Source: Cloeon dipterum
Lineage: Eukaryota > Arthropoda > Insecta > Ephemeroptera > Baetidae
Assembly (NCBI RefSeq): GCF_949628265.1
Contig: NC_088786.1
Location: 7,626,001 to 7,690,000, forward strand
Length of the DNA: 64,000 bases
Reading direction: 5' to 3'
Shown: piece after piece, positions 24,401 to 27,400 of the stretch
Layout: each line of letters begins with the position of its first letter
How positions within the stretch are numbered: position 1 is the first letter of the stretch
Made by a program: the position numbers and the translations under genes
The notes under the pieces: generated by a model
What the model saw: only the letters and a program-made list of their open reading frames with translations
What the model was told of the DNA's origin: nothing
Databases searched by the model: none

Positions 24401-27400
24401 AAAAGCAAACAAAACTTAAATTTTCATACAATTACGCAGATGCCTAGAGATCGATTTTAAATACTTTTTAAAATTCAAAATGACGTTCGTCTGAAAATTG
24501 TGAAATTATTAAGTTGAGAAAATGTCATTTTGACCTTAATTTTGGGTTTTGGGCTTGACGCGAGGAATTTTTTGCACATCATATTTTTCAATCCTGAGAA
24601 TTTTTCCTATAAACTGCTAGACCCTGCCATTTTCTCTTAAAATTGTAAAATGGTAATGAAAATTTTTCTTAAACTAGATTTTTTATTGATTTGATTTAAA
24701 AATAACCTTAAATTTCTTCTGACACTTCCAGCTGCATTTGAAATAATTTAAAAACTTTTCAGATCGAATTAGACCGCAACGCTGGTATTTTCGTGACGAT
24801 GAACCCTGTCGGAAAGGGCTACAAGGGTCGACAGCGGCTTCCTGACAACCTGAAGCAGCTTTTCCGGCCGATCGTGATGGCCAAGCCGGACAGCGAGCTG
24901 ATCGCCGAAGTTCTCCTCTGCACAGAGGGCTTCCAGCACGCGGCGGACGTCGGCCGGAAGCTGGTGGAGGTGTTCAACCTGGCCGGGCGGCTACTCAGTC
25001 AGCAGCAGCACTACGACTGGGGTCTCAGGGCTCTCAAGACGGTGCTCCAAGGCTGCGGCTCGGCCCTGAAGGAGGCCAAGAATAAGGCGGGTGACGCGGA
25101 CAGAAATGCCAGCGCCGAAGCCGAGCTCGCTGTGCGCGCCCTCCGGCTCAACACGCTGTCCAAGCTGACCAAGACGGACAGCGTGCACTTCGACGCTGTT
25201 GTTAGGGACGTTTTTCCTTCCGTGGCCATCACCGAGGTGCAGAACGAACAGCTCGTGCAGGCCCTTAAAAGGAGCTACGAGCACCTACAACTAGTTGAAA
25301 CCCCCAAACAGGTAAAACTATGTAACAACTCATTTTCTTTGAATCAAAATTACTATAATGTATTCCAGTTATTTAAGACTTTTTCTTAGGAAGGATCTAA
25401 ATCAAGTGACACCCCCCTTGGCAAGTGGTCTTCAGATTTTGATGAAATTCGGTGGAGATGTTGCCCTAGGGGACCTAAGTTGAACCCTAAAATATTAGGT
25501 GAAAATTCCAAAAATTGCCCATTTTACAGGGGTTCAAAATTTGAGATTTTTGAAAAAGGTGATGTTTTCGGCGATTTGGAACTTTGACTCTGTTTGTGGT
25601 AAACACAAAAATTTGGTATCCAAAATAATCTACGTTTAATGCCAAACAATATCCCCACGACGACCAACTTCGTAGGTCAAAGGTCAAGGTCACTAAATTC
25701 GGGTCAAACTTTTCGAAAAAATCCCACATACCCTAGTACATAAAATTTTGAAAATTCAAAATAGCCAAAATGTGCCTCATATCCATGGTAACAACATATA
25801 AAAAATTGGCGAGACTTATTTTTTTCTTTTTCGAGATATTTTGAATTGAGTGTTAAAAACCGGTGTTTTCCGGGTCTTCTGATCGCAAATAAAAACACGT
25901 TTTCCGCTTAATCTCAGCTTTTATGGGTCCGATTTAGAAAAACCGCACACCATTCCATACGTAATGACCTCCCCTAGGTAATGCAAGTGATGATAAGGGT
26001 GCCCACCCCCTTCGAACCCTTAACCACCCCCTGGAAATCCGAAAAAAATATTTTTTCATATATTTACTATCTAAATCGATTAATTAAGCAAAATACTAAC
26101 CAAATATGTTCCAAAATAATTAAAATATAAAATATTTCTATTTTCTTTGTAGAAATAACTTTAAAAAAGTAAAATTGCTCATAAAAAATTATTTAAGTTT
26201 TTTTTAAATATATTAATAATTTTGCGTTTCTTTGTTTATTCAAAATGACTGAATTTTATATTTTTATAATGAATTATTAAATATATTTTCTATTCTACAG
26301 TGTTTATTTTATTATTATAAATAAATGCAACTATTAATAATTGTTTAACCATTGACCATTGGTATTGGGTAAAAATTGTGTGTTTAAAACATTGTTGCTA
26401 ATGGTTGCATACCTTTATATTTATAAAAAATACTGTAAAATAGAAAATATATTCGAAAATTCATTAAAAAAATATAAAATTCAGTCATTTTGAATAAACA
26501 AAGAAACGCAAAATTATTAATATATTTAAAATAAACATTAATAATTTTTCATGAGCAATTTTACTTTTTTAAAGTTATTTCTACAAAGAAAATAGAAATA
26601 TTTTATATTTTAATTATTTTGGAACATATTTGATTAGTATTTTGCTTAATTAATCGATTTAGATAGTAAATATATGAAAAAATATTTTTTTTCGGATTTC
26701 CAGGGGGTGGTTAAGGGTTCGAAGGGGGAGGGCACCCTTATGATCACTTGCATTACCTAGGGGAGGTCATTACGTATGGAATGGTGTGCGGTTTTTCTAA
26801 ATCGGACCCATAAAAGCTGAGATTAAGCGGAAAACGTGTTTTTATTTGCGATCAGAAGACCCGGAAAACACCGGTTTTTAACACTCAATTCAAAATATCT
26901 CGAAAAATAAAAAAATAAGTCTCGCCAATTTTTTATATGTTGTTACCATGGATATGAGGCACATTTTGGCTATTTTGAATTTTCAAAATTTTATGTACTA
27001 GGGTATGTGGGATTTTTTCGAAAAGTTTGACCCGAATTTAGTGACCTTGACCTTTGACCTACGAAGTTGGTCGTCGTGGGGATATTGTTTGGCATTAAAC
27101 GTAGATTATTTTGGATACCAAATTTTTGTGTTTACCACAAACAGAGTCAAAGTTCCAAATCGCCGAAAACATCACCTTTTTCAAAAATCTCAAATTTTGA
27201 ACCCCTGTAAAATGGGCAATTTTTGGAATTTTCACCTAATATTTTAGGGTTCAACTTAGGTCCCCTAGGGCAACATCTCCACCGAATTTCATCAAAATCT
27301 GAAGACCACTTGCCAAGGGGGGTGTCACTTGATTTAGATCCTTCCCTTAATAATTTATTTCTAATGATCATTCTATCAATTTCTATGCCAAAATATACCG

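What the first reader, a model, noticed from the sequence alone, without database searches (positions are those of the whole stretch)
25389..27345. 2-kb near-perfect palindrome inside a dynein intron
The arms are colinear without indels over most of their length, bounded by a CTTA duplication, and nearly identical outside the decayed centre. Transcription of Dync2h1 must produce a hairpin of about 0.9 kb in the pre-mRNA. That could feed endo-siRNA (hpRNA) production, attract ADAR editing or hamper splicing of intron 29. High arm identity implies recent insertion or gene conversion between arms. A non-autonomous element made almost entirely of inverted repeat, without transposase, is unusual.
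Basis: partly seen in the sequence, partly recalled or inferred. Interest (0 to 1): 0.8.

Follow-up and report, generated by a model that had tools for sequence, protein, structure and literature searches.

The report
Palindromic hitch-hiking transposon family
The 2-kb palindrome in this dynein intron is one of dozens of copies of a mobile DNA element that carries no enzyme of its own and apparently relies on two rare, intact relatives elsewhere in the genome, with which it seems to have swapped end sequences.

Summary
Window 25389-27345 is a 1957-bp near-perfect palindrome (arms ~943 bp, spacer ~70 bp, 4-bp CTTA duplication) in a dynein-2 heavy chain intron. It is very unlikely to be an artefact: of 35 loci of this type fetched from the same genome, 28 are full-length (1937-1957 bp). 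A sister palindromic subfamily exists (15 loci fetched, 10 full-length). Of 47 two-ended elements, 42 have perfect 4-bp duplications.

Two 4-kb elements with the same ends carry uninterrupted transposase frames (80% identical, dN/dS 0.16) and near-identical TIRs: the likely autonomous partners. Duplication length, TIR length and a possible DDD triad fit Sola, but no Sola reference sequence was available.

Both palindrome arms derive from the autonomous element's left end (TIR plus 5' leader, stopping before the ATG), a layout like maize Mu killer and explained by Galileo-type TIR recruitment. Arms of one copy differ by 0.44%, arms of different copies by 3.1%: arms are homogenised. The outer ~430 bp of each subfamily groups with its own autonomous partner (24 of 24 informative sites); the next ~260 bp groups the palindromes (10 of 11). 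Ends were exchanged, probably from palindromes to autonomous elements. A hairpin-RNA function is untested.

The parts
25385..25388 (.). left target-site duplication CTTA
   Evidence: 42 of 47 two-ended elements have a perfect 4-bp duplication
25389..26331 (+). left arm: TIR plus 5' subterminal leader of the autonomous element
   Evidence: matches L051 left end 2196-3146 over arm 1-943 at 83%
25389..25818 (+). outer ~430 bp of left arm, the segment that groups with the L022 TIR
   Evidence: 24 of 24 informative sites; limit chosen
26316..26323 (+). TATA-like TATAAATA near the inner end of the left arm; a similar stretch is in the right arm and before the ATG of L022
   Evidence: read from the sequence; promoter activity not tested
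26332..26401 (.). spacer / decayed centre
   Evidence: arm matches stop at element positions 943 and 1014
26402..27345 (-). right arm: the same left end of the autonomous element, inverted
   Evidence: matches L051 left end to arm position 944; L051 right end only to ~680; bins
26916..27345 (-). outer ~430 bp of right arm (mirror of 25389-25818)
27346..27349 (.). right target-site duplication CTTA
25312..27539 (+). host intron of the dynein-2 heavy chain gene (GT 25312, AG before 27540)
   Evidence: exon identity

Best explanation
The palindrome is a non-autonomous 2-TIR (foldback-type) DNA transposon. Both arms are copies of the left end of a 4-kb autonomous transposon: its ~700-bp TIR plus about 250 bp of 5' leader, ending just before the transposase start codon. 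SHOWN: the family, its fixed ends, the 4-bp duplications, the two transposase-bearing relatives with the same TIRs, the left-end origin of both arms, low divergence between arms of one copy, and the mosaic of outer and inner arm. INFERRED: the palindromic form arose when repair of one end copied the other end and ran inward past the TIR; it spread by cut-and-paste with transposase supplied in trans by elements such as L022 and L051; arms of one copy are kept alike by conversion; ends were exchanged between palindromes and autonomous elements, more probably from the abundant palindromes to the rare autonomous copies (about 0.65 on that direction). In Dync2h1 it is most likely a passenger that is removed with the intron.
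For: 28 full-length copies of 35 window-type loci and 10 of 15 second-subfamily loci; 4-bp duplications in 42 of 47; partners L022 and L051 with TIRs of ~765 and ~715 bp, 99.7% and 100% identical, uninterrupted frames of 619 and 621 aa, dN/dS 0.158; left-end origin of both arms; arm divergence 0.44% within versus 3.07% between copies, below all of 10,000 random pairings; private variants in both arms 28 of 63 in the outer 600 bp; mosaic: informative sites 24:0:0 for partner grouping at 0-430 against 10:1:0 for palindromes together at 430-690, with matching tree supports and distances.
Against: Transposition in trans is not shown. The AU test does not reject win+aut in the inner arm (p 0.141 for 430-690, 0.202 for 690-940; 0.178 for 450-940), and 690-940 resolves neither grouping. 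L022's own leader is a weaker match than L051's (right arm 0.42 to its left end against 0.36 to its right end at 750-825). 16 of 56 arms are closer to an arm of another copy than to their own partner. Mirrored private variants might be inherited from lost source copies. The direction of exchange assumes similar rates along the arm. Five of 47 elements lack a perfect 4-bp duplication. Superfamily is unproven.
Confidence: 0.88

Rival explanations
1. Functional hairpin: transcription through the copies (for example of Dync2h1) makes long dsRNA of TIR plus leader sequence that is cut into small RNAs and silences the two autonomous elements, a mobile Mu killer-like repressor.
For: The predicted RNA is one hairpin; arms are 96-98% identical to the outer 430 bp of a partner's TIR (distances 0.041 and 0.045); only two transposase copies against dozens of palindromes; Mu killer has the same layout.
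Against: No RNA data. In the Mu killer paper the silencing plants had short antisense transcripts starting inside the element, while read-through transcripts were found in plants that failed to silence. By symmetry, transcripts from the two arm promoters would be identical, not complementary. Spread by transposition alone explains the data.
Confidence: 0.1
2. Similar outer ends reflect selection for transposase binding rather than exchange of ends between elements.
For: TIRs bind transposases in general; partner-specific ends are expected if each enzyme prefers its own end.
Against: The partner-specific block is ~430 bp with an abrupt change and 24 of 24 sites; palindrome-to-palindrome distance is even across it (0.094 versus 0.083), so the outer arm is not simply slower.
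Confidence: 0.15
3. Assembly artefact or a simple local inverted duplication.
For: None found; long reads were not available.
Against: Direct duplications at the outer ends, 28 full-length copies at separate sites, a shared asymmetric centre, copy-specific differences between arms.
Confidence: 0.01

Closest known systems
Galileo 2-TIR elements (P superfamily, Drosophila); PMC3573991, passages and the whole Discussion seen
   Same: Transposase-less copies of 1.7-2.2 kb made almost wholly of TIRs; TIRs of one copy 98-100% identical; TIR growth by recruiting internal sequence; chimeric copies.
   Different: Different superfamily; there no functional transposase was found, here both partners have uninterrupted frames; here the palindrome is uniform in size and its ends track one partner each.
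Mu killer (maize MuDR derivative); PMC3440606, abstract and passages seen
   Same: Inverted duplication of the transposase-gene end: both TIRs from the same end, transposase 5' region in inverted copies.
   Different: Mu killer is a single locus that reaches 1.3 kb into the coding region and silences MuDR; here dozens of mobile copies stop before the ATG and no silencing is known.
Tetris / Foldback elements (Drosophila); PMC4079207, abstract and passages seen
   Same: Non-autonomous, long inverted repeats, no coding capacity.
   Different: 8-10-bp duplications and no known autonomous partner; here 4 bp and two candidate partners.
Sola DNA transposons; PMC10741241 and PMC3627910, passages seen
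   Same: 4-bp duplications, element size, TIR length inside the reported 11-1124 bp, a possible DDD triad.
   Different: No sequence comparison with a Sola transposase could be made; the Sola2 elements in PMC3627910 have short TIRs (12-21 bp).

Membership tests
Non-autonomous cut-and-paste DNA transposon (2-TIR / foldback type) | dispersed copies with fixed ends and target duplications | tested here: met
Non-autonomous cut-and-paste DNA transposon (2-TIR / foldback type) | shares TIRs with a transposase-coding element in the genome | tested here: met
Non-autonomous cut-and-paste DNA transposon (2-TIR / foldback type) | mobilised in trans by that transposase | not testable with these tools
   needs a cell assay
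Sola superfamily | 4-bp target duplication | tested here: met
   42 of 47 elements; feature from PMC10741241
Sola superfamily | DDD transposase homologous to Sola references | tested here: inconclusive
   candidate D392, D476, D517 kept in both proteins; no useful Pfam or PDB match; no reference sequence at hand; that the ORF resembles Sola is recalled
Mutator/Foldback (FB, Tetris) | 8-10-bp target duplications | tested here: not met
   0 of 47 match at 7 or 8 bp, 42 of 47 at 4 bp (9 and 10 bp not counted, but a match there would need the same last bases only in another register); feature from PMC4079207
MITE | short (usually under 600 bp) and very numerous | tested here: not met
   1935-1957 bp, dozens of copies; criterion as in PMC3573991
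Hairpin-RNA (hpRNA / Mu killer-like) silencing locus | RNA that can fold into a long hairpin | tested here: met
   predicted fold only
Hairpin-RNA (hpRNA / Mu killer-like) silencing locus | small RNAs from the arms that repress the homologous element | not testable with these tools
   no RNA data

The most novel reading that the evidence does not exclude
A self-spreading Mu killer: a mobile palindrome built from the transposase gene's own 5' end that lands in transcribed introns, is read through into long hairpin RNA matching the autonomous TIRs, and also overwrites the ends of the autonomous elements by conversion. Parasite and host element are thereby locked into shared ends while transposase copies stay at two.
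Probability: 0.1. Interest if true: 0.78.

Novelty: new variant of a known kind. Interest (0 to 1): 0.5.

Why it matters
It offers a compact natural system in which three questions about long-TIR transposons can be tested together: how palindromic derivatives arise from one end of an autonomous element, how their arms stay identical, and how a non-autonomous family keeps ends that match its transposase source. The mosaic indicates that ends pass between parasite and autonomous element, probably from the common to the rare, which differs from the usual picture of derivatives that only decay from a master copy.

Tried and rejected
Assembly artefact, simple local duplication and chance were rejected. 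Mutator/Foldback membership was rejected on duplication length, MITE as a label on size and number. Identification of the transposase by Pfam (best GrpE, E 0.78, below cut-off; upstream exon best Zn_ribbon_IFT122, E 0.011, below cut-off), PDB (0 matches at E up to 1) and viral contigs (2 pattern matches, 0 relatives) failed. A search of papers for five protein motif words gave 0 papers. Two reference papers on Sola and on DDE transposases were not held. The TTAGG telomere pattern gave 0 matches and did not help to place the host. The idea that the two arm promoters would give complementary RNAs was dropped: by symmetry their transcripts would be identical. Structure prediction was not tried, because its stated rule does not name loci fetched by the genome search or the fetch from genomes.

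Rows dropped before counts: arm comparisons used 28 of 35 window-type loci; left out were L017 (1125 bp, two-ended) and L015, L020, L021, L036, L043, L044, where the end pattern found one end only (L015 and L036 are otherwise nearly full length). Trees used these 28 and 10 of 15 second-subfamily loci. The duplication count used 47 two-ended elements; L017, L029, L031, L055, L066 lack a perfect 4-bp match, and one element also matches at 6 bp. L045-L048, L064 and L069-L076 were looked at but not counted there. The 430-bp limit was chosen after seeing the bins, and one search counts only columns where one base reaches 70% in each palindrome subfamily.

Full report
OBSERVATION. The palindrome is real. 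Its outer arms, 25389-26056 and 26678-27345, are 668 nt, ungapped and 99% complementary, and the symmetry continues inward at 90%. Aligning the two halves gives 944 identities in 974 aligned positions with 4 short gaps; the outer 600 bp has one mismatch and the last ~80 columns before the centre are decayed. CTTA flanks it on both sides. No comparable inverted repeat was found elsewhere in the window. Folded as RNA, 942 of 945 predicted pairs belong to one hairpin. The neighbouring exon matches human cytoplasmic dynein 2 heavy chain far better than any other dynein in PDB (209 versus 124 bits), and two further exons carry dynein-related domains. The intron would be about 267 bp without the insert.

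A FAMILY, NOT A SINGLETON. The genome that holds the window has 190 Mb in 10 contigs. A 27-base end pattern with up to 3 mismatches has 35 forward and 35 reverse matches and none for its reversed control. Of 35 window-type loci fetched, 28 are full-length two-ended elements of 1937-1957 bp, one is a 1125-bp two-ended form, and in six the pattern found one end only. A second subfamily with another end sequence came up with the TIR of L051; of 15 loci fetched, ten are full-length (1935-1941 bp), one is 1840 bp, three are shorter (1625, 1160, 883 bp) and in one the pattern found one end only. A degenerate end pattern gives 147 matches against 4 for its control. Of 47 two-ended elements, 42 have a perfect 4-bp target duplication; none matches at 5 bp and one at 6 bp; the targets are AT-rich. 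Whole-genome counts are lower bounds, since only the best candidates are scored.

THE AUTONOMOUS PARTNERS. L022 (C2:34853707-34857709, 4003 bp, duplication AAAT) has ~765-bp TIRs that are 99.7% identical and an open frame of 619 aa. L051 (C2:6500319-6504305, 3987 bp, duplication ATGT) has ~715-bp TIRs that are 100% identical and an open frame of 621 aa. They are the only two matches to this protein among 4 candidates scored in the genome. Both have an upstream exon with an ATG and an intron-like GT...AG gap in the same place. The proteins are 80% identical; dN/dS is 0.158 over 613 codons with dS 0.66, so the coding sequence has been under purifying selection. Superfamily: 4-bp duplications, TIR length and element length fit Sola as described in PMC10741241 (passages); PMC3627910 (passages) also gives 4 bp for Sola2, but with short TIRs. 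A DDD triad can be proposed (D392, D476, D517). Pfam and PDB gave nothing useful and no Sola sequence was at hand, so I call it Sola-like, provisionally.

ANATOMY AND ORIGIN. L051's left end matches both palindrome arms up to arm position ~943, while its right end matches only to ~680, near the inner end of its TIR. At arm position 750-825 the right arm of the window copy is 0.64 identical to L051's left end and 0.37 to its right end; in the second subfamily the figures are 0.71 and 0.35. L022's leader is a weaker match (0.42 against 0.36 in that bin, 0.63 against 0.41 in the next), but in local alignment with 50 shuffles both arms beat all shuffles against its left end, and against its right end the left arm barely does and the right arm does not. 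Both arms therefore come from the transposase-gene end and stop shortly before the ATG (element position 965 in L022, 985 in L051). A TATA-like stretch is kept in both arms (read from the sequence, not tested). The simplest origin is repair of the right end from the left end with the copied tract running inward past the TIR, the scheme proposed for Galileo (PMC3573991, Discussion); the result has the layout of Mu killer (PMC3440606, abstract and passages).

ARMS EVOLVE TOGETHER. Over the outer 600 bp, arms of one copy differ by 0.44% on average and arms of different copies by 3.07% (28 copies). In 10,000 random pairings of the 56 arms the lowest mean was 2.08%; 30 of 56 arms are strictly closest to their own partner, 10 tie and 16 are closer to an arm of another copy. 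Of variants private to one copy, 28 of 63 are in both arms in the outer 600 bp, 14 of 24 at 600-750 and only 6 of 43 at 750-900, so homogenisation drops off near the centre. Of variant-by-copy cases for variants carried by three or more copies, 236 of 258 agree in both arms. In L016 one arm carries, between about 227 and 321, eight alleles common in other copies that its other arm lacks, together with some private changes, as if a conversion tract had been caught before it reached the other arm. Mirrored private variants could also be inherited from lost source copies, so place and time of conversion are not fixed.

ENDS ARE EXCHANGED WITH THE PARTNERS. In the outer 430 bp all 24 informative sites group each palindrome subfamily with its own autonomous partner. 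At 430-690, ten sites group the palindromes, one supports a third grouping and none the partner grouping; at 690-950 the counts are 10 for the palindromes, 5 for the third grouping and 2 for the partners. Trees: at 0-200 and 200-430 window type plus L022 have supports of 100 and 99.7 or more, and uniting the palindromes is rejected (AU p 3.5e-5 and 1.3e-4). At 430-690 the palindromes are united with supports 100 and 98.5, but window type plus L022 is not rejected (p 0.141). At 690-940 neither grouping is in the best tree and neither is rejected (p 0.202 and 0.34; a first split at 400/450 gave the same picture). Mean distances at 0-430 and 430-690: window type to L022 0.041 and 0.179; second subfamily to L051 0.045 and 0.134; palindrome to palindrome 0.094 and 0.083; L022 to L051 0.106 and 0.140. 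The even palindrome-to-palindrome distance suggests that the autonomous elements received ends from the palindromes rather than the reverse; unequal rates along the arm could mislead. Synonymous difference between the transposase genes (pS 0.44) is far above their TIR distance, as if the TIRs were younger than the split of the genes, though constraint could contribute.

WHAT IT DOES IN DYNC2H1. Most likely nothing specific: a recent passenger. The outer 600 bp of the window copy differs by 0-1 bases from the copies at C5:25029239 and C3:35564403. Hairpin processing, editing and splicing effects are possible and untested.

NOVELTY. Non-autonomous palindromic transposons, TIR recruitment and arm conversion are known. 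New here, as far as my paper searches can tell (open-licence papers only), is a foldback family tied to a Sola-like transposon with intact frames, and the partner-by-partner exchange of ends.

Noticed in passing
L048 (G000:C2:13075339-13085239): Two divergent ends of this family lie 8.76 kb apart inside a larger structure: 928-bp inverted arms 99.8% identical (200-1127 / 8634-9561) around a 1.7-kb direct repeat 99.2% identical; origin unclear.
   Followed up: partly
L067-L076: More diverged relatives with a third end type, among them a 1112-bp form (L067) and a 367-bp form (L068) with 4-bp duplications; some look nested or decayed.
   Followed up: partly
L016 (G000:C1:41375475-41378021): One arm carries a run of alleles typical of other copies at about 227-321, absent from its other arm: a possible conversion tract in progress.
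   Followed up: partly
window 43001-45000: Purine-rich stretch on the + strand: AT skew 0.21-0.22 and GC skew 0.09-0.18 over two 1-kb bins.
   Followed up: no
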